Positions 9,788 to 29,179 of a DNA stretch of 32,641 nt are shown here, piece after piece. A program made the position numbers and the translations under genes. Below the pieces are notes generated by a model. It worked only from the letters and a program-made list of their open reading frames with translations. It had not been told where the DNA came from and made no database searches. This stretch comes from Amycolatopsis rhizosphaerae (GTDB lineage Bacteria; Actinomycetota; Actinomycetes; Mycobacteriales; Pseudonocardiaceae): NCBI RefSeq assembly GCF_007713715.1, contig NZ_VJWX01000020.1, positions 1 to 32,641 of the forward strand, in the 5' to 3' direction. Every line of letters begins with the position of its first letter. Position 1 is the first letter of the stretch.

Positions 9788-10561
9788 TCAGGTCACGGGG
9801 AAGTAGGTGGCGATGTCGGCGAGCGCATCCAGGGTGGCATTGTCGACGTGGCCGGTTGCGGTGTCGGTCTCCGCGATGATCATGGCGTTTTTGTCCGGCC
9901 GGGCCTGGTAGTGGTGCCCGGTGATGTGTACGCCGGTGAGGCCGAGTACTGCGGCAATCTCCAGAGGTCGGACATCGCCGCTGCCCTGCACTCGCTCGAC
10001 CTTCTCGAAGGCCTCGGCCTGCTTCGCGCTGCGGAATCCGACCCGGACCACCGACACCACTGCGGCGTTGCCGTGTCCGTCGCCGACAGCCATGAGCATG
10101 CGATCCAGCGAGGTGCACGGGGTTCGAGCCAGGAATTCGCGGACCTTTCCGGTGGATGAGGCGACACAGTCCAGTTCACGCTCGGCTTTGTGCTTGAGTC
10201 GCTTGAGCTTTAGCTTGCCCAGCGCCTCGTCGGTTTTCCCGCGCTTGGCCGATTCGCGGGCCGATGTCCGGCGGGTTTTCATCGACCGCCTTGGCAGCAA
10301 GTCGACCACATCACCTGCGGTGTTTCCCGCTACCGCTTCCGCCGCGGATCCGGCCCCGGCCTCGGCGGCCGCACCGCCCAGTGCACCGATCCCGGCCGCC
10401 CCACCGGCGCCACCCGCGATCACGAGCGCAGCCGCCAACGCTACGATCCCGCCACGTCCCTTGCCGGAACCACCACCGTCGCGAATGAAGATCCGTCGGC
10501 CGTCCTTGGTGATCCAATGCCCGTTTTCCGGCACTCCACGGTTCCCCTCGTCCCCGGACAC
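9788..10561 (-). CDS. Hypothetical protein with one hydrophobic segment
   Basis: I do not recognise this 257-residue protein. The start is GTG at 10561; an in-frame stop lies just upstream. A second GTG at 10534 (residue 10) has AGGGG nine bases before it and may be the true start. Visible parts are an N-terminal GHWITKDGRRIFIRDGG stretch, a Gly/Ala-rich hydrophobic segment at about 37-65 that could span or associate with a membrane, a basic linker at about 90-125, and a C-terminal globular part (about 130-257) with no catalytic motif I know. It sits alone between the composite operon (207 bases away) and the Wadjet operon (103 bases away), in the same direction. It could be an accessory of either, or a remnant of something else. 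Confidence 0.6.
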   Translation of the reverse strand: MSGDEGNRGVPENGHWITKDGRRIFIRDGGGSGKGRGGIVALAAALVIAGGAGGAAGIGALGGAAAEAGAGSAAEAVAGNTAGDVVDLLPRRSMKTRRTSARESAKRGKTDEALGKLKLKRLKHKAERELDCVASSTGKVREFLARTPCTSLDRMLMAVGDGHGNAAVVSVVRVGFRSAKQAEAFEKVERVQGSGDVRPLEIAAVLGLTGVHITGHHYQARPDKNAMIIAETDTATGHVDNATLDALADIATYFPVT

Positions 10562-10768: not shown

Positions 10769-12931
10769 CTATTCCGCGCCTTGCCTGGTGCGATTCGTTG
10801 TGGGCGGCAGAAAAGGGCTGGGCGTGCCGTTCCAGGTGACTGCAAGGGCCTCTCGCGCCCGAGTACAGGCCACGAAAAGCAGGCAACGCTGCTTGAACAG
10901 GTCGGCATCGTGCAGCCGTGGGTCGACCTCCAGCGGCGTGACCTCTTTGCCGAACGGCACGGCTTTCGCGGTGGCCCCGACAACCGCGACACAGCGGAAT
11001 TCGAGTCCCTTCATGGCGTGCATGCTGGCAAGGCGAACTCCCTCATCATCAGCATTGGGCTGGTTCTTCACGAGTACAGCGGGGATTCCCGCAGCAGCCA
11101 GTTCCTTGTTCACCTTGTCGAGCATCAGGTTGAACCGCGCGCAGATGGCGATCTCGCTGGCTTCCACGCCTTGGTCAAGCCATGTCCGCACCCGGTCGAC
11201 GACCGCGGCGACCTCCGCCTGTTCGCTCGGATGGCCTTCGATGTGCGGGCGCTTCCCGTGCAGCAACGAGCGATAGCCGACGAGGCTGTCGTTGCCCTCG
11301 CCACCCAGATCCTCGACGGGAGAGCCATCCATCACCCCGGTCGACCAGGCGAGGATCTCCGCGGTGTTGCGGTAGTTGAGCCGCAGGCGACTACTGCGGC
11401 CGGCCACCGAAATCCCGAGCTCGCGCAGGGACACGCGGGAATCGTAGATCCGCTGGTGCGGGTCGCCGGTGATGAACAGATCGTCCGCCCCCGCGGGCAC
11501 AGCCGCCCGAAGGACCCGCCACTGCGCCGGATGCAGGTCTTGTGCCTCGTCGACGACCACGTGGTGGTAGCCGTGTTCGCCCAGGTTGGCGGTGGCGAGC
11601 AGGTCTGCCGCCTGAGCGCACATCAGCAGTTGGGTGGTGGCCCGCGCACCCTGTAACTCCAGGCGGAACGCCTCGACGGCCTCCCAGAGCCGCTGGCGTT
11701 GGCGTGGCCCCAGTGCGGCGCCGCGGCCGCGCCGTTCGACCCGCAGGTAGTCCTCCCTGCTTTCCACCTGATGTGCGATGACGACGTGCCGGTGCTCCTG
11801 TGCCAGGAACTGCTCGGTCCAGGGCAGGTCGAGGTGGCGGCGGATCCGCCGCCAGATCTGCAGTTCGTCGGCGTCGGTGATGGGGGCGGGGGCGCGGCCG
11901 GACAGTTCCCGCACGACCCGGTGGGCGTAGGCGTTGACGGTGGTGACGTCCACGTTCGACAACTGCTCGTCGTCTATCAGCAGCGCCAGGTTCTCTCGCA
12001 AGGTGCGGGCCAGGGCGGTGGTGAACGTGGTGAGCAGGACCCGGCTGGCGGGATCACGGCTGAGCAGGTGCTTCACTCGGTGGAGGGCGACCACGGTCTT
12101 GCCGGTCCCCGGACCACCCGAGACCTGCGCGGGCCCGTTGTACGACGGGCGGTACGCCACGCGGCGCTGGGACGGGTGCAGAAACACGCGCCAGGCCGCG
12201 AACGGCTTGTCCAGGATCTCGGCCAGTTCGTCCGGACCGGTGACGAGCGTGATGCGGCTGGTGGTGTTGGCGATGGCCATCGCCAGGCTGTCTTCGGTGC
12301 CGGAACTCGTCTCCACGGGTCGCCGGACCGCGACGACGTCCCGGTACACCTCTTCCGGGGTGAAACCTTCGGCCAGGAACTGCAGCACCTCGTACTGGTC
12401 CTCGGGCAGCAAACCGCCGAAGGCGGCCAGTTGTGCCTTGTCCGTGATGGCTCGTGCCGCGCGCAGAACCTGGTCGTCGATACCGAGGTCGCGTAGCACC
12501 GTGTCCGAGTGCTGGGCGAACAGCAGCGTCGGCGCTTGCGCCGCCACTTCCTCCAGGGACGGGGTGAGCTGTTCGATGGCGAGGACGTTCCGGACTTCCA
12601 GGCCCCGGGTGGCGGTGTTGACGGTGTACAGCCGCTTCGCCGCCCAGTTGTAGGCGTCATCGTGCCGCACGACGTTGAGCAGCAGGAACATGTCACTGCC
12701 GTCGTCGGGGGCGAGCACCACCCCACGCCAGAAGTCGGTGACGCGGATCGTGCGCATCCGCGAGTCGCGGGCGTTGTTCACCGACTCCAGGTGCAACCCC
12801 TTGTCCGCGTGCAACTCGGCGACCGACAACTCCTGGAACTTCTCCATCGCCTTGCGCACCCCGGCCTTGATCGGCTTTTCCAGCCGATCCCAGGTCTCCC
12901 AGAACGTGTTGGCGAAGGCGAGTCGAGGCAT
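10769..12931 (-). CDS. UvrD/Rep-type superfamily 1 helicase with RelE/ParE-like N-terminal domain
   Basis: A 720-residue protein starting MPRLAFANTF at ATG 12931, seven bases after the mcrC stop. Residues 1-120 resemble the RelE/ParE fold: a helix pair, then RTIRVTDFWRGVVL and FLLLNVVRHDDAYNWA, where HDDAY parallels the HRDDVY end of RelE-type toxins. The helicase core follows: Walker A GGPGTGKT (272-279), VVVDEAQD (458-465), ITGDPHQRIY (487-496), LNYRNTAEI (518-526), MKGLEF (about 652) and a C-terminal VACTRARE motif. All the motifs needed for ATP-driven 3'-5' DNA unwinding are there. It is the last gene of the composite operon and probably processes DNA for, or after, cleavage by the McrBC part. 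Whether the N-terminal domain is a nuclease, a binding module or inert is unknown. The frame runs 49 residues further upstream, but that part lies within mcrC. Confidence 0.82.
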   Translation of the reverse strand: MPRLAFANTFWETWDRLEKPIKAGVRKAMEKFQELSVAELHADKGLHLESVNNARDSRMRTIRVTDFWRGVVLAPDDGSDMFLLLNVVRHDDAYNWAAKRLYTVNTATRGLEVRNVLAIEQLTPSLEEVAAQAPTLLFAQHSDTVLRDLGIDDQVLRAARAITDKAQLAAFGGLLPEDQYEVLQFLAEGFTPEEVYRDVVAVRRPVETSSGTEDSLAMAIANTTSRITLVTGPDELAEILDKPFAAWRVFLHPSQRRVAYRPSYNGPAQVSGGPGTGKTVVALHRVKHLLSRDPASRVLLTTFTTALARTLRENLALLIDDEQLSNVDVTTVNAYAHRVVRELSGRAPAPITDADELQIWRRIRRHLDLPWTEQFLAQEHRHVVIAHQVESREDYLRVERRGRGAALGPRQRQRLWEAVEAFRLELQGARATTQLLMCAQAADLLATANLGEHGYHHVVVDEAQDLHPAQWRVLRAAVPAGADDLFITGDPHQRIYDSRVSLRELGISVAGRSSRLRLNYRNTAEILAWSTGVMDGSPVEDLGGEGNDSLVGYRSLLHGKRPHIEGHPSEQAEVAAVVDRVRTWLDQGVEASEIAICARFNLMLDKVNKELAAAGIPAVLVKNQPNADDEGVRLASMHAMKGLEFRCVAVVGATAKAVPFGKEVTPLEVDPRLHDADLFKQRCLLFVACTRAREALAVTWNGTPSPFLPPTTNRTRQGAE

Positions 12932-12938
12932 GACCTGA

Positions 12939-14141
12939 TCATCGCACGGCAGCAGCGAGGTGGTCAGCGATGTCGCCGACCTGGCCCAGCAGCGCGGGCG
13001 GTGGCAATTCGAGGTCCAGTGCGTGCTGGTGGATGGTGATGCCCGCGTGCCGCACGCGGTGAGCACCGTGCGGAGCATTGCCCTTGGCGTAGACGAGATG
13101 GCCTTCGGCCAGGTTTAACGCCGTGCAGTAGGCCAGCATCTGATACAAGTCGGCATCGGGAAAGCCCTCGGGTTTTTGGGCTTTGTACTTGGCGTCCGCT
13201 ACCGCGAGCGGCGTGCCCGCGCGGTCGTAGCGGACGAAGTCCGGGATCAGGCGGATGGCGTTGCGGTCGTCGAGGTAATGGGTGGCTTGCAGAACGCAGT
13301 ATCCGTCGCCGTGGGCGAATTCCTCACGGAGCGCGGTCGTCACGAAGTCCTCGAAGACTTTCGCCATGTCGAACAGGAACCCCTGTACGGTCACGTCCCC
13401 GGACCGGTGTTCCACCGAGCAGCCGTGCAACACAAGTTCGGCCAGCCGCAACGCGACCTGGTAACGCGCGTTGAGGCGGCTGGGCCGCCATACCGGCAAC
13501 CGGCCGCCTCTGGTAAGTGGGGAGGCCTCCGCGAGGCGGACCCGCAATCTGAGCAGCACACCTCGCACATCAGGCGGGAGTCGCCCGGGCAGCCGGAGCA
13601 GGGCCTCACAGGCCGCCCGCAGCAGCTGGTTCTCCGCGATATCCGTCGTGTATTCGTCGTGCGTGATCTCCAGCGGGATCAACTGCCCGTAGCGACGGCT
13701 GAGCTGGTCACCGAGCCGGATTCTGCCTCTCACGACCAGTGCGGTTTCGTCGGTGGTGCGGTATCCCTTGAGCAGGCCCTGCCGCAGCGCTTCGTCCGCT
13801 TCCATCGCGAACAGGCGCGCGAAGGCGGGTAACAGGTCCTCGTCGCTGTCCACCTGCACGTGTTCGCTGCGCCACCCTTTGGGGCTACGGCTGAAGCCGA
13901 GGAGGAACAGCAACCGCGCGATGGGCACTTTGGGAGCGATGCGCAGGATGACGGACGAGCCGTCGGGCATGTGCACGGCGGCCACACCCACCTTGTTACC
14001 GGCGCGAACCCGCCAGTTCCCCGCCACCTCCGGGTCAGGTGCGATGTCGAGAAGCCGCGACCGCGCGAGGGCCCGGCCGGTGACGTCGTCCAGCGCCACC
14101 GAGAGCGGTGGCCCGTACTCGGCAAGCTCCAGGACGGTCAT
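12939..14141 (-). CDS. mcrC: McrC-family nuclease subunit of a type IV restriction system
   Basis: A 400-residue protein of the McrBC 5-methylcytosine restriction family. The C-terminal half has a PD-(D/E)xK nuclease core: IPDF (D301), then ADAKYK (D316, K318), then DLYQML (Q334), the usual order in McrC. Residues 1-130 form the N-terminal domain that touches the McrB ring and stimulates its GTPase; RGRIRLGDQLSRR (138-150) and ITHDEYTTDIAENQLL (159-174) are strongly McrC-like. Its ATG at 14141 overlaps the mcrB stop by four bases (ATGA). The expected action is to join McrB rings bound at modified DNA and cut between two sites. All catalytic residues are present. The partner and the operon context support restriction of modified invader DNA. 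Confidence 0.9.
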   Translation of the reverse strand: MTVLELAEYGPPLSVALDDVTGRALARSRLLDIAPDPEVAGNWRVRAGNKVGVAAVHMPDGSSVILRIAPKVPIARLLFLLGFSRSPKGWRSEHVQVDSDEDLLPAFARLFAMEADEALRQGLLKGYRTTDETALVVRGRIRLGDQLSRRYGQLIPLEITHDEYTTDIAENQLLRAACEALLRLPGRLPPDVRGVLLRLRVRLAEASPLTRGGRLPVWRPSRLNARYQVALRLAELVLHGCSVEHRSGDVTVQGFLFDMAKVFEDFVTTALREEFAHGDGYCVLQATHYLDDRNAIRLIPDFVRYDRAGTPLAVADAKYKAQKPEGFPDADLYQMLAYCTALNLAEGHLVYAKGNAPHGAHRVRHAGITIHQHALDLELPPPALLGQVGDIADHLAAAVR

Positions 14142-15979
14142 GTCACCTTGTCGGATGCCGCGCCGGACGGTGGGGAGATCGCGGCGCGCAGGGCGGCCAA
14201 TCCGTAACGCTTCTCGACCTGCACTCCTTCGCCGTAGTGGTGCTCTTCCAGCAGCGGCAGGATTTTTGTCCGCCAGGTGCGTTCCAGCCCGCCCTCCCGG
14301 TACACGCCGCGCTTCATCAGATAGGACGGACCGATCTGGAAGTCCGGGTCGTCGACGCGGGCGTTCAGGGCGTCGAGCAGATCGGCCGGTTCGCTGTCCC
14401 GGCCTTCGCGGGCGAGCCAGCGGCGCAGGAGCCCCTTGGTTGGTTCGGTGCGCGGGGACAGTTCCACGAACGCGAATCGGCGCCGCATGGCGGCATCGAC
14501 CAGGGCGATGGACCGGTCGGCCGTGTTCATGGTACCGATGAGGAACAGATTGGACGGCAGCGCGAAATCGTCGCCGGAGTAGGTGAGCCGCACCGCCTTG
14601 TTGCGGTATTCGAGGAGGAAGTACAGCTCGCCGAATACTTTCGCCAGGTTCGCCCGGTTGATCTCGTCGATCACCAGGAAATGCGGGATGTGCCGGTTAC
14701 CCTCCCGGGCAGCCAGGTCGGCAAGCTCGCGCAGCGGTCCGGCGGTGATGCGCAACGCAACTTCGTGGGTGTCGGGATTTTCCTGGGGGCGGAAGCCCTC
14801 GAAGAAGTCCTCGTACGAGTACGCCGGGTGGAACTGGACCAGTTTGACCTGTTCCGGGCCGCCCCCGAGGAACTCGGCGAGTTTGAGCGCCAGGTAGGTC
14901 TTTCCGGTCCCGGGCGGCCCGTAGAGCACGAGTTGACGGTCGTCCCACAACAGGTCGCGCAGCTCGGCCAGCCAGGCGGTGTCGTGCACCAGCAACTCGT
15001 CGGCCAGCTCCGGCGTCGGGCCGGGCAGGGTGAGTTCGCGCCGGGCGACCAGAGCGGCCTGTTCGAGGCTGGAATCGCCCTGCTGGTCCTGTGCCTCGTC
15101 GGCCAGTTCCTCGTCGCTGCGTCCCAGCCCCGCGACGAGCGCCGCAACGGCGGTGAGATCGACGACGTCGCTCTGGATGGACAGCTTCTGCTGCAGTTCT
15201 TCCGGCAGCTCGTGGTACGGGTACGCCGCGGACTGCCATTCCACCGGTCGCACCAGATTCGACCGGTCGCCCTCCGAGGCAACTTGTTGCACGTCTCCGA
15301 CGATCTCGCCAACGTAAAGGTTGCCGTTGGAAATCGTGCAGACGGTGTCACCGGGTTTCATTTTGGCCAGGAACGCGTGGAGTTCGTCGACCAGCCGGAC
15401 GCGCTGGTTGTAGCTCAGCGTTGCTCCGTAGTCCTCCTCCACGAAGGTCCGCAACTCGTCTTTGCTGATGACCTGACCGATCCCACTACGCAGGTGCGAG
15501 GCGGCCACGCTCACGAGGCTTTCGGGGAGCCAGAGACGCTGCACCAGGTCGAACCCGTTGACGTTGGACCCTCGAACCAGCCAGGTGCGGTTGGGGCCAA
15601 AGGCAGGCACGGACAGGTAGTCGGCAAGCGGGTGGCCGTCGTCGGTCTTCCACTTGGTCCAACCGTTGGCGCTGCGGCCGACCAGGATCTCCGCCGCCGC
15701 AGACGGGGAGCCGCAAGTGATGTCGGTGGCCGTCTCCAGAAAGCCGGGCCATTTCGTGGATTCGACGATCTGCCCGTCCTGAATGAGATGCTCGCGAAAG
15801 ATATGTGAGGACGGCATCCTGATCGGGAATGACGGTACGACGTCGGGGCGAACCGGACATCCGGCGAAGACCACGAACTTCTGGCTGCCGTTGGCGCCCT
15901 TCTCCTCCAGCAACCGTCCCCGCGCGATTGGCCCGCCGTGCGGGAGACGGAGCTGGAACTCGGGATAGGCGCTGGTCAC
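14138..15979 (-). CDS. mcrB: McrB-type AAA+ GTPase with N-terminal DUF4357 domain
   Basis: A 613-residue protein starting at GTG 15979, four bases inside the methyltransferase end (GTGA overlap). The motor domain is at about 340-560: Walker A GPPGTGKT (354-361), VIDEINRA (436-443), and the McrB signature MNTADRS (484-490) that replaces the GTPase NKxD motif. The final part, to about 613, is the helical lid. The N-terminal half is unusual. Residues about 75-125 carry SPSAAAEILVGRSANGWTKW, the DUF4357 signature often found fused to restriction enzymes. Residues about 205-250 (GDTVCTISNGNLYVGEIVG ... RPVEW) look like a small beta-barrel of the type that reads modified bases. The likely role is to recognise modified or marked DNA and use GTP to drive McrC. 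Which base mark is read cannot be seen. Confidence 0.88.
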   Translation of the reverse strand: MTSAYPEFQLRLPHGGPIARGRLLEEKGANGSQKFVVFAGCPVRPDVVPSFPIRMPSSHIFREHLIQDGQIVESTKWPGFLETATDITCGSPSAAAEILVGRSANGWTKWKTDDGHPLADYLSVPAFGPNRTWLVRGSNVNGFDLVQRLWLPESLVSVAASHLRSGIGQVISKDELRTFVEEDYGATLSYNQRVRLVDELHAFLAKMKPGDTVCTISNGNLYVGEIVGDVQQVASEGDRSNLVRPVEWQSAAYPYHELPEELQQKLSIQSDVVDLTAVAALVAGLGRSDEELADEAQDQQGDSSLEQAALVARRELTLPGPTPELADELLVHDTAWLAELRDLLWDDRQLVLYGPPGTGKTYLALKLAEFLGGGPEQVKLVQFHPAYSYEDFFEGFRPQENPDTHEVALRITAGPLRELADLAAREGNRHIPHFLVIDEINRANLAKVFGELYFLLEYRNKAVRLTYSGDDFALPSNLFLIGTMNTADRSIALVDAAMRRRFAFVELSPRTEPTKGLLRRWLAREGRDSEPADLLDALNARVDDPDFQIGPSYLMKRGVYREGGLERTWRTKILPLLEEHHYGEGVQVEKRYGLAALRAAISPPSGAASDKVT

Positions 15980-18456
15980 CGCGCGGCATCCGGGTGACGC
16001 GGGCCGTGCCCCGGCGGCGGGTTGAGCGTCGAGGTGTAGTTCTCCCCGTCGATCAGCGGCGTGGTGAGGCTGACTCCGGCCGCCGCCATTCGGTCGTACT
16101 CCGCGAGGATCAGTTCCTTGGTGCGGTAGCTGCCGTACTTGGCCTCATCCTTGCGCTTGACGATCGGGAAGGTGTCGAGGATGTAGTCCGCGTCCTCGCG
16201 GGAGATCCCGTAGAGGTGGAAGAAGAGCGCGTCGAGTTCGGCGCGGATGATCGCGCGCCGTTCGTCGTCCCAGACGAACGGTGCGCCAGTGTCGCCCAGA
16301 TCTCGAGCGAAGGGGGCGATATCGTGAGCCGTATAGGATAGTTCGAGCACGCGGGATGCGATAAATATGGCGTGCACCGACAACACTGAAGGCGAAGCGA
16401 TCGGAAGCTGATAAACAGTAAAGAACTTTAGGTGCGTTCCTCCAACCTTCTGTCGCGCTGCAAAGTCAAGCACAAACGATGACAAACAGCCAACTAAACC
16501 ACTCACAGGCTCTTCAGTGGGCAGCATCAGCAATGTTCCATCAGGAGCTGCTGCGCGAGCAAATAGACTATTAATCATGGTGCGCTCATCCGTGGCTCGA
16601 CAGATATCGCGCCACCCGACGAGCCAGCCGCGGTCCCAATGTTTTACGGCAAGCCGGGTGGCAACACCGGCTTCGTAGATCCGGTTCCCGTTCTTGCCGA
16701 AGCGATCCGTGGGAATATCTTCCTCGGACACCCAGTAGCGCGGAAGGACGACAGCGTTCGGGTCTTGTTTCTCGGTCAGATCGCGTGTAGATCCATCCTC
16801 GTTGTACGTTGCCCACCGATGGTCGTAGTGGTGCACCATTTTCGCCTCGTACAGCGGCAGCATACGCGCAGTGCCCTTGGCGAAGACGTTGCCGGTGAGG
16901 GTCCAGCCGTCCCGCTCAAGTTCCTCTCGTTTGTGGAAGAGGTGCGAGTCGCTTGTCATGTTGAACAGTCCCTGCATGAACGATACGCCCCACGGGTTGC
17001 TGCCGCCGCGACCAAGCTCATCAGGTTCTTTCACCAGCACCGGTACCCGGCGATAAATCCCGAGCGTTATCTCGGCATCCCGGCGAGAGCGGAAGATAGG
17101 ACACGTTCCGGTGTTGGGGTTGAGGAGGGTGATCTCCTCGGGCGTGAGCGCGAACGCCTTGTTCGCGTCGTCGAGTTCCGCCGGGTCATGCAGGAAGAAA
17201 GCGAACGTGGCGGCATCCTCGCGCAGACCTCGCCCCGTAATCGACAGAACACAGAACTTCATGCGTGAGTCAACGGCAGGAAAGAGATTGCTCCGATTCT
17301 CGAAGTCGTAGAGAGCGGCAAGAGAGGCCGCCTGAACTAAGTCTTTGAAGAAATACTGGGTGGTTGCATCGGTCGCGATGCCGGTGGGAAGAACCATCCC
17401 CATACGTCCACGAGAGCGGATTAACTGTCGCCCTTGCTCGGCAAATACGGGGTCGGTCTTTATTCGACCACGGCCACACAATGGGAAGATTTCAGAATTG
17501 CTCGCGAAATGTCTACTTCCATCAATTTTTCGCTTCGCTTCCTCGTAAATATGGAACAAAAAGGAGTTTTCTTCTCGAAGCCGTCCGATGAGCTTCTTCC
17601 GCTTGTCTCCGGCCGCTGCGGCGATTGCTGGGGAACGAGACGAGAAGAACTCCTGTTCCTTGAGTTCCAGGTGCTCCCACGGCGGGTTACCCAGCACGCA
17701 GTCGAATCCCTCACCCCAACCGGTCCCCTCAGTCACCGCCGAGCCGTCGTCGGGCACCGAGAAGACCTCAGGGAACTCCAGGTGCCAGTGGAAGAACCGG
17801 TACTGCTCGCGCAGCCGGACGATCTCGTCATGCGTCTCCTGCGATGCTGCCTTGCCTTCCGGGTCTTGCAGCCCCCGGAAGACCTTCTCCGTCACCGCCT
17901 GGGGAGCATCCGCGTCCTTGGGCCAGAGGAACGCGGCGCACCAGGCGTCAGCCACGTGCAGCGCGTGCCGGTACCCGGCAGACTCGGCGAACTTACGGTA
18001 GTCAGACTCCTGGCGACGCACTCCGCGCAACTGACCGGGGACGGTCTTCATCAGTTGCCGGACGTCGGCCGCGAACGCGGCGTTGGACACCTTCGTCTCG
18101 GTGTGGATCTCGAACAGCTCTCCCTGGCCGAGGCGTTCCGACTTGTTCTGGCGCGCCAGCGACCTGGCGAACTTCTTGTCGTCGCCCTCGATGGGATTGA
18201 ACGCCTCGTCCGGGATTCCCTTGCGGAGCAAACCAGGTGTGGCGCCGATAAGAGCGTTACCGCACTTGATGTGCGCGTCCAGGAAGCTCAGCGCCGTTCC
18301 CGATTCCATGGCTTCCAGCCACAGCGAGACCTTGGCGAGTTCGACCGCCATCGGGTTGAGATCGACGCCGTAGATACAGCGGGCGATGACCTCATGCAGC
18401 GCGCTGCGCACCGCGTCCGTCGTCGGCTCGGGGTTGTGCTCCCGCACCGACGCCAC
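15976..18456 (-). CDS. Eco57I-type adenine methyltransferase, C-terminal part (frameshifted, DrmMI-like)
   Basis: This 826-residue frame is the catalytic and target-recognition part of a giant N6-adenine methyltransferase. The listed start is the GTG at 18456. The same frame is open back to 18618 and includes the S-adenosylmethionine motif I CDPACGSGHF (18490-18519), followed by IYGVDLNPMAVELAKVSLWL. Motif IV NPPW lies near 17690 (VLGNPPWEH). A protein starting at 18456 would lack motif I and should be inactive, so this frame is best read as a continuation of the gene at 18569-20059. Removing one base gives a continuous frame of 1360 residues, a size close to class 1 DISARM DrmMI proteins. 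The segment after NPPW has clearly lower GC than its surroundings at about 16321-16620 and 17461-17580. It ends in a GTGA overlap with mcrB. Confidence 0.82.
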   Translation of the reverse strand: MASVREHNPEPTTDAVRSALHEVIARCIYGVDLNPMAVELAKVSLWLEAMESGTALSFLDAHIKCGNALIGATPGLLRKGIPDEAFNPIEGDDKKFARSLARQNKSERLGQGELFEIHTETKVSNAAFAADVRQLMKTVPGQLRGVRRQESDYRKFAESAGYRHALHVADAWCAAFLWPKDADAPQAVTEKVFRGLQDPEGKAASQETHDEIVRLREQYRFFHWHLEFPEVFSVPDDGSAVTEGTGWGEGFDCVLGNPPWEHLELKEQEFFSSRSPAIAAAAGDKRKKLIGRLREENSFLFHIYEEAKRKIDGSRHFASNSEIFPLCGRGRIKTDPVFAEQGRQLIRSRGRMGMVLPTGIATDATTQYFFKDLVQAASLAALYDFENRSNLFPAVDSRMKFCVLSITGRGLREDAATFAFFLHDPAELDDANKAFALTPEEITLLNPNTGTCPIFRSRRDAEITLGIYRRVPVLVKEPDELGRGGSNPWGVSFMQGLFNMTSDSHLFHKREELERDGWTLTGNVFAKGTARMLPLYEAKMVHHYDHRWATYNEDGSTRDLTEKQDPNAVVLPRYWVSEEDIPTDRFGKNGNRIYEAGVATRLAVKHWDRGWLVGWRDICRATDERTMINSLFARAAAPDGTLLMLPTEEPVSGLVGCLSSFVLDFAARQKVGGTHLKFFTVYQLPIASPSVLSVHAIFIASRVLELSYTAHDIAPFARDLGDTGAPFVWDDERRAIIRAELDALFFHLYGISREDADYILDTFPIVKRKDEAKYGSYRTKELILAEYDRMAAAGVSLTTPLIDGENYTSTLNPPPGHGPRHPDAAR

Positions 18457-18568
18457 CCGCTTCGCGATACGCCGGGCCGCGGCAACCAGGAAGTGGCCCG
18501 AGCCGCAGGCGGGGTCGCATACCTTCAGCGACAGCAGTTCGTTGACGATCCGCTCGGCCGGATCCGGC

Positions 18569-18618
18569 TCACCTGGCCGCCGTAGCCGCGATCTCGGCCC
18601 GCTTGACCGCGTCGTCGA
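18569..18618 (-). other. Frameshift zone joining the two halves of the methyltransferase
   Basis: Both reading frames are open between 18572 and 18618; the upstream frame ends at TGA 18571-18569 in the context GCC AGG TGA GCC. One extra base in this zone explains the split: dropping the A of AGG gives GCC GGT GAG CCG, which runs directly into the motif I frame. The summed length 15976-20059 is 4084 bases, one more than a multiple of three. A sequencing error, a real inactivating insertion, or +1 slippage at AGG-TGA would all look like this. Confidence 0.7.
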
Positions 18619-22956: not shown

Positions 22957-22981
22957 GTTCGCTATTCCGTCTTCCTGATCG

Positions 22982-25900
22982 TCAAGCAGTCGCGCCGGGG
23001 CCGAAATACCGCTGAAACTCCTGAGCAATGGCCCGCCAGTCCCCGTCATGGGGGAATCGGACGACCTCCCAGCCCGCGTCGTAGAGGCGCTCTTGGGCAT
23101 CGGCGTCCCGCTGGGCCACGGTGGCGTGCTCGTGCACCGGGCCGTCGACGAACACCGCGAGGCTGACTCCGGGCAGCCGGTAGATGAAGTCGGGTCGGGC
23201 CAGTGCCTCCGAGACGAAGGTCTGCGCCTCGTCCGGCAGCCGAAGCCCCTGCTCCTTCAGCCACGTGATCAGCCGCTCCTCCAGCCGCGTGTCCGACTGC
23301 GAGGTCAGGCGCGCGAGCTGGTCGGTGCGGGACTCGTTCTGACCGGCAGGCAATGCCTGCGCGCTCGCCAGGCGGAGCAGCAGCTCACGCACGGAATGCC
23401 GGTCGATCGCACCGTGGTTGAGCTGGTTGCCGTAGGTCAGCAGGCAGTCGTAGCAGCCGCGCGCGCACGGGCGGTCAGGGTGCGGACCGCCGCGATCGTG
23501 ACCGTCTCGGTCGAAGTGACAGATGTCCAGTGCGGCGACCGCGGCCCTGGCCAGCGCCGCCGGGTCCGACTGCATCAGTCGAAGCACCCCCGCGCCGCCC
23601 TCGGCCGCCTCGGTGAACAGAATCCGGTCGCGTGGGCCGTGGTCGGGCGGCAGCAGTTCGGCGGTCAGTTCCGCGTCTTCCAGCTCGAACTCGGACTCGA
23701 TACCGCGTTCCAGCGCGTACATCAGCGACAGCGCCACCTCTTCCGGGAGCGGTTGGGCCAGTTGCAGCACCAGAATGTTGCGTCGGTCCTCGACGTAGGG
23801 GATCACCCGCTTCTTGCGGCGCTTCTCGTTGCCGTCCGCGTCGACAACGGGCATTTCGCTGGAGTCGCCGGATGCATCAGCGGCGTCCCGCTCGTTCATC
23901 CACCGCCCGTCCGCGGGATCGAGCCAGAAACCGTCAGGCTCGTCCTCTTTGGCGCGAATGCGGCCCACGTTCGTGATGCGCACGGTTGCCGAATCGCCGT
24001 AGGTCACGGTGGCGATCTCCCCCGTCGCGTCGCTGACTTTCGCGTCACGGCGCCCGGGCCGCAGCCCGTGGTCGTGGAACCGGTAGGAGGTCACGAGGCG
24101 GAACCCGGCGCGGCGGCGTTCCTCTTCGTCAGAAGAGATCCGCTCACGCCGCCGCGTGTAGACCGTGTGCAGATTGAGCAGACCGCTGGTGATCTCGCGC
24201 AGCGGCTCGTCACACATCTGACAACGGTCGGCCTTGTCGTTCTGGTCGTGGTGGTAACCGCACGCCGTGCAGCGTTTGGCGCTTGTGGTCACCACATCGC
24301 CACTGCCATCGGACGGCAACTGGATCCGGGTGACCTGGTAGCGAGCGCCTTCGTGGTAGATCAGCGCTCCGGGCCCGAACTCGCGGATGGCGAGGAACCG
24401 CGGACGCTGCAGGTAGTCACCCTCGCCGAAGCGCCGCCCCGAGGTGGGGATGTAGGCGGCGAGCGGCAGCCGCGGGAAGGAGTAGCCGGGCAGGAACCCC
24501 TCGCTGGCCAAGTAGCGGTACGGGTTGAAGTCCGACAACACCGACTTGCTGTCCGGGGTTTCGTTCTTGAGCAGGTTGAGCTGGGTTTCGGCTTCCCGGC
24601 GACGGTTGACGGCGATCTGACGGTCGCGTTCGGACAGCGTGTGGTCCAGTACTCGCTTGTTCTGCTCGGCCTGGTCGGCCTGCGCGGCGCGAAAGAGATC
24701 GCGCCACCGGTCGAACGCCTCGTTGAACTGCCGGGGTGCCGCCCGGACGGTGTCGTCGATCCACTGGTCGTCCCACCATGCGGAGTCGGCAAGATCGCCC
24801 CGCAAACCGCCGAGCACCTCGCGTGTGGCTTCTGCCGCCCGGCGAGGCACCAGCGCGTCTTTGAGCGCCGTCTCCACGTGGTCGAGCAACGGGAGCTTGG
24901 GGTCACTGATGTCGACGATCTCCGGGACGGCACGACCCAGCTTCAGACCCGACTCCGCCAGCCAGATCGCCTGCACGTGCGAACGGACCAGGTCCTCGTT
25001 GGCCAGATCGAGCCGGGGCGGGGCCACGGCGCCGGCCACCATCCGTTCGGAGCGGCGGAAGTAGTACTGGTCGTGGCTGTTGCCGGTGGCGCAGTAGGTG
25101 GTGACCAGCGCGGGCTGCCCGGACCGGCCCGCGCGGCCGCTGCGCTGGGCGTAGTTGGCCGGAGTGGGCGGGACGTTGCGCATCATCACCGCGTTCAACT
25201 CGGAGATGTCCACACCCAGCTCCATGGTGGGTGAGCAGTACAGCAGTTTCAGCTCGCCCTTGCGGAACGCTTCCTCGCGCTGTTCCCGGTCCGCCGGGGT
25301 CACCTGTGCGGTGTGCTCGCGGGCGACCAGTCCGCCGAGTGTGCCCGCCGTGTCCCGGTAAAGGTCCCGGAAGAACCTGTTGACGCGCGGTCCCTCGCCA
25401 CTGGCGTAGGTACGGGTGAGCGGGTCGTGTACGCCGACCTCGCCGGTGCCCGCCTGCCAGACCAGGATGCGGGCGGCCACCCGGTAGCCGGTGACCGTCG
25501 ACGTGGGCCTGCCACGACGGCCGTACTGGGGAGAAGCCTTGACGCGTTGGACCATGCTCGCGTCGGCGAGCGTTTCCAGCAGATCGGCCACGATCTGCTG
25601 CGCGTCGTCCGGGGACAAGTCGGGAAAGTGCACGCGCCGCAGGTACTTGCCGAACTTGCCACGGCCCGACAGGTACAGGCCCGCGTTGTCCATGCCGGGT
25701 TTGCGGCCGAACGGGAATGCGGTCCCCTCCGGCTCTCGGTCACTGCTGGACAACACCCACGGGTCGATCAGGCGTTCCTCGCTGGCCCGCTGCAGCGTGT
25801 AGAAGTCATCACGGAAATACTGCACGTCGATGGCCAGCGACCGGCGCATCTCGTCAAGCAAGGCGCGGATGATCTCGGTGCGCTGCCCTGGTTCGGCGTC

Positions 25901-28900
25901 ACGCAGCTTCGGATGGGCCTTCGACCACCTCTTCGGCTCGTCGGCCAACCAGTCCAAGTCTTCGTAGTGGATTTCCAGCAGACCCGTCTGCTCCAGGTTG
26001 GGCATGGTGACGCGCCAGCCGCGTTTCAGGTCCAGGTACAGGCGGAAGGCGATGACGTCGCGCAGAGTCTTGGCAGCAGCGCGGGCCAGCGAGGGGGGAA
26101 GATCGTCGGCCCCCGCGAAATCAGCGATCTCCAGATTCAGCGCCTCGGCGACGCGGGCGGCGAGTTCCTCGTGCTGGATTCCCTCGTCGCCAGCCGCGAG
26201 CGCCGCCCGGTACAGGGCCCCACGCAGCTGGATGATCTGCACGAAGTCGTTGAAATGACCGGCTTGCAGCGAGGCGTCCTGCCGGTTGTCGACGAACGTC
26301 AGCAGCTTGCGGGCTTTCGGGTCGAGCGCTTCGGGAGGCGCCTGCTTCAGAGAGCGGACGATGGAAGCAGAGATCAGCGAGGTGGCGGACGACCGGCCTT
26401 CCTGGTCGAGCGTGGCGAGCTTGGCGAAGTCCCTTCCCCTGGTCTGCTCGTAGCTCACGGCACAGTGCAGGCAGAACAGGAACGGTGCCGGAATGAACGC
26501 TGCCCGAAGCTCGCCCTGCCCCTCCACGCCGTAGGGGTCGACCGAGATGGCCTGAGGTAAACGCTTCCGGTAGGAATCGCGAACCGATTCGTACCCGTGC
26601 TCGTCGACCTCCAGCCAGGACTCCGGCAACCGGCGGTCCGCGATCGCCTCCTCCGTGGTCGTCGGCCACGGGCGATCGGAATCGAGGTACAGGTAGCCGT
26701 CGCCGGTACGGCCCCCGGTCGCCGACGTGTCGCGGCGAGGCTCGTAACGAACAGTGGCACCACTGCTGTTCCGCCAGACCGTCAGATACTCCTGGCCACA
26801 ATCGCGGCAGAAGGCGAGCGGCAGCAGGACCTTCCCGTCGGAACCAGGCTGAATCCGCTGGTAGTCACGGGTCAGGTAGCGAGTCTCGCTGTCCTCCAGG
26901 GTGACGTAGACGGTGTCACCCTTCGACAGGAACTGGTGAAGCCGGAAAGCGAACAGCGGCCGGTCGGTCACCGGATGCCGGGCTTGAGACCCCGCCTCGA
27001 GAGTTCGCCGGATCGCTTCCGCACACGTGTCGGCGGCTACGCCGGTCTGCTCCGCGAGCTCGTGAGCGGCCTCTTCGATCTTGGCAGGCCGCTGGCGGAT
27101 CAGCCGCCCCGCGGCGTCCGTGGCCAGGCCGAACTGCGTCTCGATCCACCGGGCCAGCGGGTCGGACACCAGTTCCGCGTAGGAACGGGGAGGGTGCACC
27201 GCGTCGAGCCGCTCCACGGGAACGGCACCGGTGTCCGGTTCGGTGGCGCGCACGAGAGTTTCACCGATGACGTTGGCCGGCTTCACCCCAGTGCCGAAGA
27301 GTTTGCTCGCCACCGCGGCGACGACGGCCTGCTGGTCTTCGAAAGTGCCTTCGCTGGACATGGTCGCCGAGGTGCCGATGCACTGCAGCCCGTCGGCGAG
27401 GCAGGCTTCACGGACCCGGCGGATGAGCAGAGCCACGTCCGCGCCTTGCCGCCCACGGTAGGTGTGCAGTTCGTCGAAGACGAGGAACTCCAGCCCCTTG
27501 GCCATCTTGATGAGCGAACGCCGGTCGTCGGGCCGGGTGAGCATCAGCTCCAGCATCACGTAGTTGGTGAGCAGGATGTCCGGCGGATTGTCCCGGATCT
27601 CCTTGCGGCGCTCGTCGCTCTCCTGTCCCGTGTAGCGGGCATACGTGACGGGTTCGCGACCAGGGCCGTACCCGTCGAGCAAGAACTTGTCCAGCTCTTT
27701 GAGCTGGCTGTTGGCCAGAGCGTTCATCGGGTAGACGACGATTGCGCGGACCCGGCGACGCCCAGCAGGACCTTCTGCGTCTCGCTGCCGCAGCACACGG
27801 TCGACGATCGGCACAATGTAGGACAACGACTTGCCGGAACCGGTACCGGTGGTGAGCACGTAGGACTCTCCGGACCGGGCGATGTCGATCGCCTCACGCT
27901 GGTGCCGGTGCAGGGTCAGGGGCCGCCCGTCACACACCACGGACCCCTCCGTCTTACCGCTCTGGAAGATCCGTGTGCACTCGTCGTGCAGCACACCCTG
28001 ACCCGCCAGCTCAAGCACCGTGCCGCCAGAGGCGAAGAACGGGTTCAGCGACAACCAGGGGTCCGGCCATTGGGACTTCGAGTCCAGATCCCCCTTGACG
28101 AACCGGGCAATTCGCTCGTTCCGAATGGTCGTGCCACCCTCGGTGAAGGACCGGTAGTCGGCGATGAGCTTCTGGTGAACACCGAAGACGTCCATCCCGG
28201 TGACCGGTGACGGGGGCACCGAACCCTCAGGCCGCGCCGGGGACGGCACGTGCGAACCGGAAAGCCAAGCGACGGGGTTCAAGCCGTCCCAGCCCCGTAT
28301 CGTCTCGGTGCCGGTCGCGAAGGGCAGGAGCGCCCGGCGGACAGCGACAGCGTCCGTCGGTCGATCCGAGGGCTCTTTCGCCAGCAGGCGCTCGACGAGC
28401 CGGGAGAGATCTCCGGGTATGTCCTTCCGCAGCAGGCGGATCGGGGGAACCGTGTCGTTCAGATGTTTCTGACCGAGCTCGTGCGCAGAGGCGGTGTCGA
28501 ACGGCGGACCGCCGGTGAGCAACTCGAACAGCACGCACCCCAAGGCGTACAGATCAGCTGCCGGGCCGACAGCGGCGGCAAGGAACTGCTCCGGCGCCAT
28601 GTAACGTGCGGTGCCGACGGTGACGCCGGTGCTGGTGATCCTGCCCGTGTCGGCGTCGTCGACGAGACGACCCATGCCGAAGTCGAGGACCTTGACTCCC
28701 CCGCCCCGCACAATCATCACGTTGGACGGCTTGAGATCACGGTGAACGACACCCACGCCGTGGGCCGCGGACAGGGCATCGGCCATCTGCACACCGATCG
28801 CGGCGACCCAGGAGATCGGCAACTGCGGCCGCTCTGAGAGCAGGTCATACAGCGAACGGCCGTCCAGGTACTCCATGGCCAGGTACGGGACTCCCGCGTC

Positions 28901-29179
28901 GTCCACACCTCCGTCGACGGTGCGAGGAAGGTTGGGATGGTCGAGCCGGTGCATGATGCGCACCTCGCGTTCGAAACGCTCGACGACCTTGACTCCCGGC
29001 TCCGAATCTAGTAAGAAGCCGCCCGAGCTGCGCAGGATTCGTTTCACGGCCACGACGCGGCCCGGGGATCGCTCCGCCGCTTGGAGATCCTCGGCGCGGT
29101 AGACCTCGCCCATGTTGCCCTTGCCGATAGGGCCTAGCAGGCGAAAACGCCCCGCGACGGTCTCCGGCTTCCCCGCCAA
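22982..29179 (-). CDS. Ser/Thr protein kinase - DEAD-box helicase - DUF1998 - nuclease-like fusion protein
   Basis: A 2065-residue protein. The TTG start at 29179 is set by GGAGG seven bases upstream. Residues 11-290 form a complete Hanks-type kinase: GKGNMGEV (19-26), K46, HRDLKPSN (146-153), DFG (166-168), APE (195-197). A Pro/Ser-rich linker leads to MDVFGVH at 329, where the helicase part begins: TGTGSGKS (444-451), FDELH (568-572), GTSATMS (602-608), and QRSGRAGR (about 1345). A CxxC...CxxC zinc ribbon lies at 1637-1656. A DUF1998 region with a Cys cluster (CHFDRDGHD ... CARGCYDCLLTYGN) lies at about 1890-1925. The last 100 residues (LEERL, RPDF, VFVDGPVHEH, GWEVVRFP) look like a DUF559/Vsr-type PD-(D/E)xK nuclease. 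It is the first gene of the operon. The helicase-DUF1998 part corresponds to DrmA/DrmB or DruE functions. The kinase may sense or gate activity, as PglW does in Pgl/BREX. Confidence 0.87.
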   Translation of the reverse strand: MAGKPETVAGRFRLLGPIGKGNMGEVYRAEDLQAAERSPGRVVAVKRILRSSGGFLLDSEPGVKVVERFEREVRIMHRLDHPNLPRTVDGGVDDAGVPYLAMEYLDGRSLYDLLSERPQLPISWVAAIGVQMADALSAAHGVGVVHRDLKPSNVMIVRGGGVKVLDFGMGRLVDDADTGRITSTGVTVGTARYMAPEQFLAAAVGPAADLYALGCVLFELLTGGPPFDTASAHELGQKHLNDTVPPIRLLRKDIPGDLSRLVERLLAKEPSDRPTDAVAVRRALLPFATGTETIRGWDGLNPVAWLSGSHVPSPARPEGSVPPSPVTGMDVFGVHQKLIADYRSFTEGGTTIRNERIARFVKGDLDSKSQWPDPWLSLNPFFASGGTVLELAGQGVLHDECTRIFQSGKTEGSVVCDGRPLTLHRHQREAIDIARSGESYVLTTGTGSGKSLSYIVPIVDRVLRQRDAEGPAGRRRVRAIVVYPMNALANSQLKELDKFLLDGYGPGREPVTYARYTGQESDERRKEIRDNPPDILLTNYVMLELMLTRPDDRRSLIKMAKGLEFLVFDELHTYRGRQGADVALLIRRVREACLADGLQCIGTSATMSSEGTFEDQQAVVAAVASKLFGTGVKPANVIGETLVRATEPDTGAVPVERLDAVHPPRSYAELVSDPLARWIETQFGLATDAAGRLIRQRPAKIEEAAHELAEQTGVAADTCAEAIRRTLEAGSQARHPVTDRPLFAFRLHQFLSKGDTVYVTLEDSETRYLTRDYQRIQPGSDGKVLLPLAFCRDCGQEYLTVWRNSSGATVRYEPRRDTSATGGRTGDGYLYLDSDRPWPTTTEEAIADRRLPESWLEVDEHGYESVRDSYRKRLPQAISVDPYGVEGQGELRAAFIPAPFLFCLHCAVSYEQTRGRDFAKLATLDQEGRSSATSLISASIVRSLKQAPPEALDPKARKLLTFVDNRQDASLQAGHFNDFVQIIQLRGALYRAALAAGDEGIQHEELAARVAEALNLEIADFAGADDLPPSLARAAAKTLRDVIAFRLYLDLKRGWRVTMPNLEQTGLLEIHYEDLDWLADEPKRWSKAHPKLRDAEPGQRTEIIRALLDEMRRSLAIDVQYFRDDFYTLQRASEERLIDPWVLSSSDREPEGTAFPFGRKPGMDNAGLYLSGRGKFGKYLRRVHFPDLSPDDAQQIVADLLETLADASMVQRVKASPQYGRRGRPTSTVTGYRVAARILVWQAGTGEVGVHDPLTRTYASGEGPRVNRFFRDLYRDTAGTLGGLVAREHTAQVTPADREQREEAFRKGELKLLYCSPTMELGVDISELNAVMMRNVPPTPANYAQRSGRAGRSGQPALVTTYCATGNSHDQYYFRRSERMVAGAVAPPRLDLANEDLVRSHVQAIWLAESGLKLGRAVPEIVDISDPKLPLLDHVETALKDALVPRRAAEATREVLGGLRGDLADSAWWDDQWIDDTVRAAPRQFNEAFDRWRDLFRAAQADQAEQNKRVLDHTLSERDRQIAVNRRREAETQLNLLKNETPDSKSVLSDFNPYRYLASEGFLPGYSFPRLPLAAYIPTSGRRFGEGDYLQRPRFLAIREFGPGALIYHEGARYQVTRIQLPSDGSGDVVTTSAKRCTACGYHHDQNDKADRCQMCDEPLREITSGLLNLHTVYTRRRERISSDEEERRRAGFRLVTSYRFHDHGLRPGRRDAKVSDATGEIATVTYGDSATVRITNVGRIRAKEDEPDGFWLDPADGRWMNERDAADASGDSSEMPVVDADGNEKRRKKRVIPYVEDRRNILVLQLAQPLPEEVALSLMYALERGIESEFELEDAELTAELLPPDHGPRDRILFTEAAEGGAGVLRLMQSDPAALARAAVAALDICHFDRDGHDRGGPHPDRPCARGCYDCLLTYGNQLNHGAIDRHSVRELLLRLASAQALPAGQNESRTDQLARLTSQSDTRLEERLITWLKEQGLRLPDEAQTFVSEALARPDFIYRLPGVSLAVFVDGPVHEHATVAQRDADAQERLYDAGWEVVRFPHDGDWRAIAQEFQRYFGPGATA

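What the first reader, a model, noticed from the sequence alone, without database searches (positions are those of the whole stretch)
10769..29179. Candidate composite defence system: kinase-helicase-nuclease + SNF2 + adenine methylase + McrBC + UvrD in one operon
Seen: six genes (one split by a frameshift) on one strand with junctions of 25 nt, TGATG, GTGA, ATGA and 7 nt, so co-expression is nearly certain. Known: class 1 DISARM pairs DrmD (SNF2) with DrmMI (adenine methylase) plus DUF1998 and helicase proteins; McrBC is a separate type IV system; Pgl/BREX type 2 uses the PglW kinase. Inferred: parts of these systems have merged into one unit in which the methylase marks self, the two helicases and McrBC attack unmarked or wrongly marked DNA, and a kinase controls the machine. 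I do not know a named system with this exact set, and I saw no PLD (DrmC-like) gene.
Basis: partly seen in the sequence, partly recalled or inferred. Interest (0 to 1): 0.9.

Follow-up and report, generated by a model that had tools for sequence, protein, structure and literature searches.

The report
Kinase-fused ARMADA anti-phage operon
Six bacterial genes in a row form a variant of a recently described anti-virus system called ARMADA, in which the main DNA-cutting motor has gained a protein-kinase switch and a second enzyme that may read chemical marks on DNA sits in the same gene row; this makes the control of such systems testable.

Summary
In detail: six same-strand genes with the stated junctions, one (the adenine methylase) frameshifted. 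The reading as an unnamed merger is only partly right. The first three genes (YprA/DUF1998 helicase with a Vsr-like nuclease, SNF2/BrxHII-like ATPase, PglX-like methylase) match ARMADA Type I (2025 preprint), and a McrBC link was noted in 2024. Three things are unreported in the texts I searched. (1) A catalytically intact Ser/Thr kinase is fused to the ARMADA helicase, with one origin on the tree. (2) The last gene is a RelE-UvrD protein, homologous end to end to E. coli ArmD, a Type II hallmark; it is linked to 14 of 16 kinase forms against 1 of 13 kinase-less forms in a family sample. (3) In many actinomycetes, mostly streptomycetes, the first three genes and the RelE-UvrD end stand 14-45 kb apart on one strand with other defence genes between them (39 of 50 genomes searched); the window is the compact form. 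McrB carries DUF4357/RAMA-like and weakly YTH-like domains, candidate m6A readers, beside an adenine methylase. Best reading: a kinase-gated ARMADA with a built-in second cut that reads adenine methylation. The biochemistry is inferred.

The parts
22982..29179 (-). Kinase - YprA-type DEAD helicase with DUF1998/MZB - C-terminal Vsr-like nuclease (ArmC-like), 2065 aa
   Evidence: Pfam Pkinase, DEAD, Helicase_C, MZB; DUF559/Vsr/MTES_1575 weak at the C-terminus; fused in one ORF in 77 of 78 named loci with upstream sequence
28310..29179 (-). N-terminal Hanks-type Ser/Thr kinase domain (residues 1-290)
   Evidence: PknB-like 247 bits; K46, H146-R-D148, K150, D166-F-G, A-P-E197 invariant in 98 of 98 and N153 in 97 of 98 aligned rows (89 distinct proteins)
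22985..23302 (-). C-terminal PD-(D/E)xK (Vsr/DUF559-like) nuclease domain
   Evidence: D1997 in 98 of 98, D2012 in 95 of 98 kinase-form rows
20059..22956 (-). SNF2/BrxHII-like ATPase (ArmA-like), 965 aa
   Evidence: SNF2-rel_dom, Helicase_C; PADLOC model labelled DpdE 1649 bits, DrmD 276 bits
18569..20059 (-). PglX-like adenine methylase, N-terminal fragment (ArmB-like)
   Evidence: DrmMI models; continuous with the C-terminal part in nearly all relatives
15976..18456 (-). Same methylase, C-terminal fragment (Eco57I family, NPPW at about 17688); motif I at about 18516 is in this frame but upstream of its first start codon
   Evidence: Eco57I E 1.6e-17
16200..17700 (-). Variable, low-GC stretch of the methylase, probable target recognition region
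   Evidence: GC 0.53-0.60 against 0.64-0.69 around; identity among 17 relatives 0.46-0.65 here against 0.71-0.84 in the first 580 residues
14138..15979 (-). McrB: DUF4357/RAMA-like domain, YTH-like domain, AAA+ GTPase with NTAD motif
   Evidence: DUF4357, AAA_5; RAMA E 4.5e-4, below Pfam's cut-off; YTHDF2 top fold match; NTAD
15626..15796 (-). DUF4357 / RAMA-like domain of McrB (residues 62-118)
15155..15592 (-). YTH/PUA-like candidate reader domain of McrB (about residues 130-275)
   Evidence: AlphaFold2 model, mean pLDDT 76; Foldseek prob 0.99-1.00, E 1.2e-3 to 2.3e-3 to four YTHDF2 chains, rmsd 7.7-11
12939..14141 (-). McrC nuclease subunit
   Evidence: Pfam McrBC E 1.5e-56; PDF and DAK motifs
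10769..12931 (-). RelE-like domain fused to UvrD/GajB-like helicase (ArmD-like), 720 aa
   Evidence: UvrD, GajB; 35% identity to an E. coli ArmD-type protein over residues 2-708, E 7e-126
12587..12931 (-). RelE-like N-terminal domain
   Evidence: AlphaFold2 pLDDT 78; six RelE/YoeB-type chains at E < 0.001, prob 1.00

Best explanation
This is the compact form of a kinase-gated ARMADA Type I system of actinomycetes, extended by McrBC and by an ArmD-like RelE-UvrD helicase. Shown by sequence: the gene set, the domain fusions, one origin of the kinase fusion among the ARMADA I-type helicases sampled, co-inheritance of the RelE-UvrD gene, and the two-ended arrangement around cargo in relatives. Inferred mechanism: (1) the PglX-like methylase, through its exchangeable C-terminal recognition region, sets which sites the complex treats as its own; (2) the SNF2 ATPase and the YprA helicase load on invading DNA, as DruE does on 3'-tailed DNA, and the Vsr-like nuclease cuts it; (3) the kinase fused in front of the helicase holds or releases that nuclease in response to infection, a check that kinase-less ARMADA must get otherwise; (4) RelE-UvrD unwinds, and perhaps cleaves RNA on, the processed DNA; (5) McrBC, carrying two candidate N6-methyladenine reader domains, is a second cut for DNA that bears adenine methylation in a foreign pattern or that escaped step 2 by being methylated.
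For: Gene order and domains match ARMADA I. Kinase: one clade of 30 rows, SH-aLRT 100, one change on a tree of 59 helicases; catalytic residues kept. RelE-UvrD: in the family sample 15 full-length genes of at least 68% identity, the window's own included; 14 are linked to a kinase-form core and one (G011) is on another contig of a fragmented assembly whose kinase I did not check. It is linked to 14 of 16 kinase forms (one copy broken, G131) against 1 of 13 kinase-less ones, Fisher p 2e-5. Helicase and UvrD distances correlate, Mantel r 0.961, 0 of 5000 permutations, n 16. In named genomes 15 of 80 loci hold it within the flank; of 50 further genomes searched 39 have it on the same contig and strand 13.9-44.7 kb downstream at 63-75% identity. 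Readers: RAMA-like and YTH-like. All four ArmA-D genes are essential in E. coli; DruE loads on 3'-tailed DNA and cleaves DNA.
Against: No experiment on this variant. The kinase's substrate and sign (activate or inhibit) are unknown. McrBC is missing from 6 of 16 kinase forms, so it is not essential to the core. In 11 of the 50 genomes no linked RelE-UvrD was found, and in three of these (L224, L264, L266) the close gene is on another contig. A methylase making m6A next to an m6A-reading McrBC would seem self-harming unless specificity or gating separates them. The YTH-like match is weak (no hit below E 0.001, TM 0.44-0.47 by target, 0.24-0.25 by query, rmsd 7.7-11), and RAMA is below Pfam's cut-off. 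In the window itself the methylase is broken. Co-inheritance of neighbours can also come from joint transfer.
Confidence: 0.6

Rival explanations
1. Three independent defence units (ARMADA I with a kinase, McrBC, RelE-UvrD) stacked by defence-island clustering and read from one promoter, with no joint mechanism.
For: The core exists without McrBC in 6 of 16 kinase forms and without RelE-UvrD in 12 of 13 kinase-less forms. A McrBC-UvrD block of 46-54% identity without an ARMADA SNF2 match exists in G148. RelE-UvrD relatives at E <= 1e-100 occur in 54 of 297 family genomes, many without the core.
Against: Three of the five junctions overlap and the other two are 25 and 7 nt; RelE-UvrD of this lineage is almost only with the kinase core; matching divergence; the same four protein kinds form ARMADA II in E. 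coli, where all are essential.
Confidence: 0.25
2. Mark-and-cut: the methylase modifies invading or replicating DNA and McrBC reads that mark and cuts, so methylation directs the attack rather than protecting self; the kinase restricts it to infection.
For: Adenine methylase (NPPW) whose stop overlaps the start of a McrB with RAMA-like and YTH-like domains; ArmB needed for defence in E. coli; an m6A-reading YTH domain is known in Thermococcus gammatolerans McrB (passages in PMC7897488 and PMC11037411).
Against: The host chromosome would carry the same marks; McrBC is optional; reader specificity untested here and both domain matches are weak.
Confidence: 0.15
3. Classical restriction-modification: the methylase marks self, both helicases and McrBC attack unmarked or wrongly marked DNA.
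For: Eco57I-type methylase with a variable recognition region; DISARM and BREX relatives are host-marking (recalled).
Against: In E. coli ARMADA II, loss of the methylase removed protection (I saw no mention of toxicity in the parts read).
Confidence: 0.2
4. The two conserved ends are simply borders of an integrative element or recombination hot spot, and the shared strand and order reflect transfer rather than function.
For: Cargo differs between genomes and includes whole other defence systems; of 193 cargo genes in 26 stretches 64 have no match in another stretch and 88 at most one; Wadjet-like genes lie beside the operon in the window.
Against: I saw no recombinase conserved at either end in the genes scanned (most cargo genes were not scanned), and the compact form has overlapping start and stop codons at the join.
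Confidence: 0.2

Closest known systems
ARMADA Type I (Bell et al. 2025 preprint, PMC12458937)
   Same: YprA/DUF1998 helicase with C-terminal Vsr-type nuclease, then BrxHII/SNF2-like helicase, then PglX-like methylase, in this order
   Different: N-terminal Ser/Thr kinase on the helicase (the word kinase occurs 0 times in that main text; supplements not seen); RelE-UvrD gene present; McrBC in the same operon
ARMADA Type II (E. coli ArmA-ArmB-ArmC-ArmD)
   Same: All four protein kinds present, including the RelE-UvrD protein end to end
   Different: Gene order is YprA first, not ArmA-B-C-D; helicase far from the E. coli ArmC-type protein (24% identity); kinase and McrBC added
McrBC Type IV restriction, 'DISARM-like associated' branch (PMC11090510 Fig. 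2 legend and passage)
   Same: McrB GTPase with NxxD motif and McrC, next to a YprA-SNF2-PglX cassette
   Different: Here McrB has DUF4357/RAMA-like plus YTH-like domains and sits between methylase and RelE-UvrD
DISARM class 1
   Same: DrmD-like SNF2 and DrmMI-like methylase homologues
   Different: Helicase and DUF1998 are one protein, nuclease is Vsr-like, no DrmC seen; the DrmD score 299 is below the NCBIfam cut-off 610
Druantia III (DruE-DruH)
   Same: YprA-type helicase-nuclease; DruE models score 350 bits on the helicase
   Different: No DruH seen, Vsr-like nuclease in place of PLD, SNF2 and methylase present

Membership tests
ARMADA Type I | YprA helicase fused to DUF1998 with C-terminal Vsr-type nuclease | tested here: met
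   DEAD, Helicase_C, MZB; DUF559/Vsr weak; D1997 and D2012 conserved
[quoted passage not shown]
ARMADA Type I | YprA falls in the Type I clade | tested here: inconclusive
   Groups with D. radiodurans and Nocardioides loci of Type I gene order, apart from the E. coli ArmC-type protein and DruE, which are very long branches; the authors' Type I reference sequence was not used
ARMADA Type I | Anti-phage activity | not testable with these tools
   -
ARMADA Type II | RelE-UvrD (ArmD) gene | tested here: met
   35% identity over residues 2-708; RelE fold
ARMADA Type II | Strict order ArmA-ArmB-ArmC-ArmD | tested here: not met
   compare L187
DISARM class 1 | Separate DrmA and DrmB, DrmC PLD nuclease | tested here: not met
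   One fused protein; no PLD domain in the 13 window proteins scanned
DISARM class 1 | DrmD at the curated cut-off | tested here: not met
   298.7 bits, cut-off 610
Dpd | DpdE with the 7-deazaguanine genes | tested here: not met
   PADLOC model labelled DpdE 1649 bits but NCBIfam DpdE 194 against cut-off 500; no deazaguanine gene among the 13 window proteins scanned
Druantia III | DruH partner and PLD domains | tested here: not met
   No DruH-like gene and no PLD domain among the window proteins scanned
BREX type 2 / Pgl | PglZ and PglW | tested here: not met
   No PglZ among the proteins scanned; PglW 56.5 bits against cut-off 990, kinase part only
McrBC Type IV restriction | McrB GTPase with NxxD motif plus McrC with PD-(D/E)xK | tested here: met
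McrBC Type IV restriction | Cleavage of modified DNA | not testable with these tools

The most novel reading that the evidence does not exclude
A new ARMADA subtype in which a Hanks-type kinase fused to the helicase-nuclease gates an adenine-methylation-centred two-step attack: the methylase writes m6A, and a McrBC with two m6A-reader domains reads it. The operon is also a two-ended scaffold (kinase-helicase, SNF2, methylase at one end; McrB, McrC, RelE-UvrD at the other) that opens between methylase and McrB to take up other defence systems as exchangeable cargo.
Probability: 0.25. Interest if true: 0.85.

Novelty: new variant of a known kind. Interest (0 to 1): 0.62.

Why it matters
ARMADA-like systems cut DNA with several motors and nucleases, and what keeps them off the host genome is not settled. 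A lineage in which a single protein joins an intact kinase to the helicase-nuclease, next to otherwise similar kinase-less relatives, gives a direct way to ask whether phosphorylation is that switch. The coupled adenine methylase and candidate adenine-methylation-reading McrBC make a sharp test of whether the methylase protects self or marks the target. The two-ended arrangement with exchangeable cargo offers a concrete model of how defence islands grow inside an operon.

Tried and rejected
Considered and rejected: (a) a Dpd system, suggested by the PADLOC label DpdE, rejected on the NCBIfam cut-off and missing partner genes. (b) DISARM class 1. (c) A wholly new merger: rejected after PMC12458937 was read (abstract, introduction, results to the start of the co-occurrence section, conclusions, figure legends and passages; methods and supplements not read). 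(d) Phase variation of the methylase: not favoured, since 29 of 32 family loci and 71 of 80 named loci have one whole frame, but a break at another place in L264 and a methylase annotated in two pieces in D. radiodurans mean that broken methylases do recur; sequencing error and recent inactivation cannot be told apart for the window.

Led nowhere or limited: sequence search of solved structures with the McrB and RelE profiles found no relevant relative (best E 0.06 and 0.13). A first regular-expression count of nuclease motifs was replaced by an alignment-based count. My first extraction of named helicases took antisense frames in some loci and was redone. The 98 rows hold nine genomes twice, 89 distinct proteins. 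The named scan used an alignment of kinase-form SNF2 proteins and kept the best 80 of 378 relatives, so 'kinase in all' there is partly by choice; the less biased counts are the family and phylum samples. Of the 80 named loci, 50 were searched for UvrD beyond the flank; 15 of the other 30 hold it within the flank and 15 (contig-cut, or L279 and L282) were not tested. A first count of 41 linked cases rested on coordinates alone; the contig lengths bear out 39 and show that the hits for L224 and L275 are on other contigs. The 11 of 50 without a linked gene are L211, L212, L224, L232, L247, L253, L257, L263, L264, L266 and L275. Gene calls in cargo are my own simple codon-score calls, not annotation. 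An earlier wording of mine that most cargo genes are unique was wrong: 64 of 193 have no match in another stretch. These corrections do not change my odds.

Papers: PMC11090510, PMC13192584, PMC11037411, PMC7897488 and PMC12715929 were seen as passages; the others only as search listings. 'Not in print' for the kinase fusion rests, open-access texts only.

Full report
Observation. The window is a whole contig (C122, 32,641 bases) of a 7.67 Mb draft genome in 896 contigs. Pfam finds a protein kinase, DEAD helicase, Helicase_C and MZB/DUF1998 in the first protein, with a weak Vsr/DUF559-like nuclease at its end; SNF2 in the second; an Eco57I methylase in the second fragment of the third; DUF4357 plus AAA_5, McrC, and UvrD in the last three. 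The methylase is in two frames. It is one whole open frame in 29 of 32 family loci (two contig-cut, one matching only from residue 131) and in 71 of 80 named loci; seven more are open as far as the sequence runs, one is cut before the gene, and L264 is broken at another place. Motif I sits in the window's second frame upstream of its first start codon.

What it is. PADLOC labels the SNF2 protein DpdE with 1649 bits, but the curated DpdE and DrmD models stay well under their cut-offs. The order YprA helicase with Vsr-type nuclease, BrxHII/SNF2-like helicase, PglX-like methylase is that of ARMADA Type I as described in PMC12458937. The same group had earlier noted a DISARM-like cassette with YprA, SNF2 and PglX next to McrBC operons (PMC11090510). 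So the core and its McrBC link are known. The main text of PMC12458937 holds the word kinase 0 times, and searches for kinase with YprA, DUF1998 or DISARM gave nothing on such a fusion.

Recurrence. In a sample of 297 genomes of the window's family the SNF2 protein has relatives in 35, the window's own included. The family appears to be Pseudonocardiaceae, because several of these genomes have contigs of the same length as named Prauserella, Saccharopolyspora, Actinokineospora and Thermocrispum records (family placement recalled). I fetched flanks of 32 of these loci, leaving out the own genome, G011 and G048. All 32 have helicase, SNF2 and methylase in this order; G216 has a shortened SNF2, and in G191 and G057 the helicase frame is interrupted. 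The kinase is fused in the 17 loci whose SNF2 is 71-85% identical to the window's and absent in the 15 whose SNF2 is 46-59% identical. In a phylum-wide sample of 396 genomes 23 hold the helicase; only the window's own copy and one other (G319) match over the kinase, and four partial matches (G666, G397, G653, G536) do not reach the helicase's start and cannot be judged. A scan of named genomes with kinase-form SNF2 found 378 relatives and kept 80. Of these, 78 have upstream sequence; all 78 have the kinase, in 77 in one reading frame with the helicase (L236 is frameshifted). They include Pseudonocardiaceae, Micromonosporaceae, Streptosporangiaceae, Thermomonosporaceae, Nocardiopsidaceae, Actinospicaceae and Streptomycetaceae (labels and genus names).

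The kinase. In 98 aligned kinase-form rows (89 distinct proteins) the Lys, HRD, DFG and APE residues are invariant, and Asn153 is kept in 97. On a tree of 59 helicases the 30 kinase forms are one clade with SH-aLRT 100 and one change of state, nested among kinase-less ARMADA I-type helicases. A quick search was used; the E. coli ArmC-type protein and DruE are very long branches, so their places are unsure. The nuclease aspartates D1997 and D2012 are kept in 98 and 95 of the 98 rows.

The RelE-UvrD gene. It aligns end to end (residues 2-708, 35% identity, E 7e-126) with the ArmD-type protein of an E. coli plasmid that carries Zorya II, what I take for Druantia III, and ARMADA II by gene order, in a row. 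Its N-terminal domain folds like RelE toxins. In the family sample the close lineage occurs as a full-length gene in 15 genomes, the window's included: 14 linked to a kinase-form core, one (G011) on another contig. There are also a broken copy in kinase-form G131 and a partial remnant in G160, which lacks the core. More distant relatives are common: 54 of 297 genomes match at E <= 1e-100. The gene is linked to 14 of 16 assessable kinase forms (G289 and G216 lack it) and 1 of 13 kinase-less forms (G115, 46% identity), Fisher p 2e-5; kinase forms were read further downstream, but the whole-genome search also shows no other linked case among the kinase-less. McrB is linked to 10 of 16 and 9 of 13 (p 1.0), so McrBC is the older and looser partner. 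G173 keeps McrBC and G160 remnants of McrC and UvrD without the core. Divergence of helicase and UvrD is correlated (Mantel r 0.961, n 16, 0 of 5000 permutations; helicase against SNF2 0.98).

A two-ended operon. In the compact form, as in the window and seven named genomes, methylase and McrB abut. Elsewhere the same two ends stand apart. With the 15 loci that hold it within the flank this makes 54 of 65 tested. Between the ends lie other systems: a DISARM pair DrmA-DrmB in G319, a Mokosh-like helicase in G259, GmrSD in G128 and Hsp70 in Streptomyces BHT-5-2, and SMC-like, dynamin-like and second McrBC genes in further streptomycetes. In G289, which lacks the UvrD end, pPIWI-RE genes follow the methylase. 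Of 27 stretches compared, 26 hold the UvrD, 23 McrB and McrC and 20 an N6-methylase gene related to the convergent one; of 193 cargo genes in the 26 stretches with UvrD, 64 have no match in any other stretch and 88 at most one, the rest recur in several. I did not see a recombinase conserved at either end, but most cargo genes were not scanned.

Readers and writer. McrB residues 62-118 match DUF4357 (E 1e-16) and, below Pfam's cut-off, RAMA (E 4.5e-4), a domain suggested to read adenine methylation (passage in PMC11037411). A model of residues 1-309 (mean pLDDT 76, nine rows) has as its four best solved matches the m6A-binding YTH domain of YTHDF2 (prob 0.99-1.00, E 1.2e-3 to 2.3e-3, rmsd 7.7-11; none below 0.001), a weak match. 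An m6A-reading YTH domain is known in the McrB of Thermococcus gammatolerans (passages in PMC7897488 and PMC11037411). The kinase-less ARMADA McrB proteins matched share the YTH-like part but their alignments start after or at the end of the DUF4357 part. The neighbouring methylase has the NPPW motif, and its C-terminal recognition part is more variable than its first 580 residues (0.46-0.65 against 0.71-0.84 identity), with a GC dip in the window and milder dips in most of eight relatives, as expected for exchanged recognition regions.

Mechanism. In E. coli ARMADA II each of the four genes is needed, and loss of the methylase removes protection, so a plain self-marking role is doubtful. DruE, a relative of the helicase, loads on 3'-tailed DNA and cleaves DNA (PMC13192584 passages). 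I therefore think most likely that helicase, SNF2 and RelE-UvrD form the attacking machine, with the methylase supplying specificity; that the fused kinase gates the nuclease; and that McrBC is a second cut that reads adenine methylation. Only the anatomy and its evolution are shown; every catalytic step is inferred.

Verdict. A new variant of a known kind: the core is ARMADA I, the kinase fusion and the tied ArmD-like gene define a lineage not described in the texts searched, and the two-ended cargo arrangement is unexpected.

Noticed in passing
window 9684-2796 (-), perhaps 2796-1558: Wadjet-like genes (DUF2397, DUF2398, SbcC Walker B) lie directly downstream; a further ORF of about 412 aa may be the fourth gene (not scanned). 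Wadjet-like genes also lie near the locus in G128 and G289 and beside the remnants in G160.
   Followed up: partly
window 29514-32431 (-): A PCMT-like methyltransferase and a LanC-like protein lie upstream of the operon.
   Followed up: no
window 9788-10561 (-): A 257-aa ORF with a weak BlmB-type acetyltransferase match (E 6e-4); relatives lie near the locus in G128 and G144.
   Followed up: no
L101 (G000:C621): The same genome holds a second, kinase-less ARMADA-like locus, about 50% identical.
   Followed up: partly
L068:5831-7573 and others: A gene for an N6_Mtase protein lies convergent to RelE-UvrD in many loci; 20 of 27 stretches hold a related gene; none in the window.
   Followed up: partly
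L285:10907-12607: In streptomycetes the cargo often begins with an HTH-DUF5753 regulator, sometimes a DUF397 gene, and an anti-sigma-type HATPase gene.
   Followed up: partly
L189:6884-18380: Deinococcus radiodurans R1 plasmid MP1 carries an ARMADA I-type locus with its methylase annotated in two pieces beside an IS element, and McrBC further on.
   Followed up: no
L264:12700-17093: A Streptomyces relative has its methylase broken in the N-terminal part, at another place than the window.
   Followed up: no
L188: Nocardioides sp. JS614 plasmid pNOCA01 carries DISARM drmAB and a kinase-less ARMADA I with McrBC close together.
   Followed up: no
L187 and L202: A conjugative E. coli plasmid carries Zorya II, what looks like Druantia III, and ARMADA II in a row.
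   Followed up: no
window 20059-22956 (-): PADLOC model PDLC02853, labelled DpdE, matches this ARMADA I SNF2 protein over its full length, so PADLOC may mislabel ARMADA as Dpd.
   Followed up: partly
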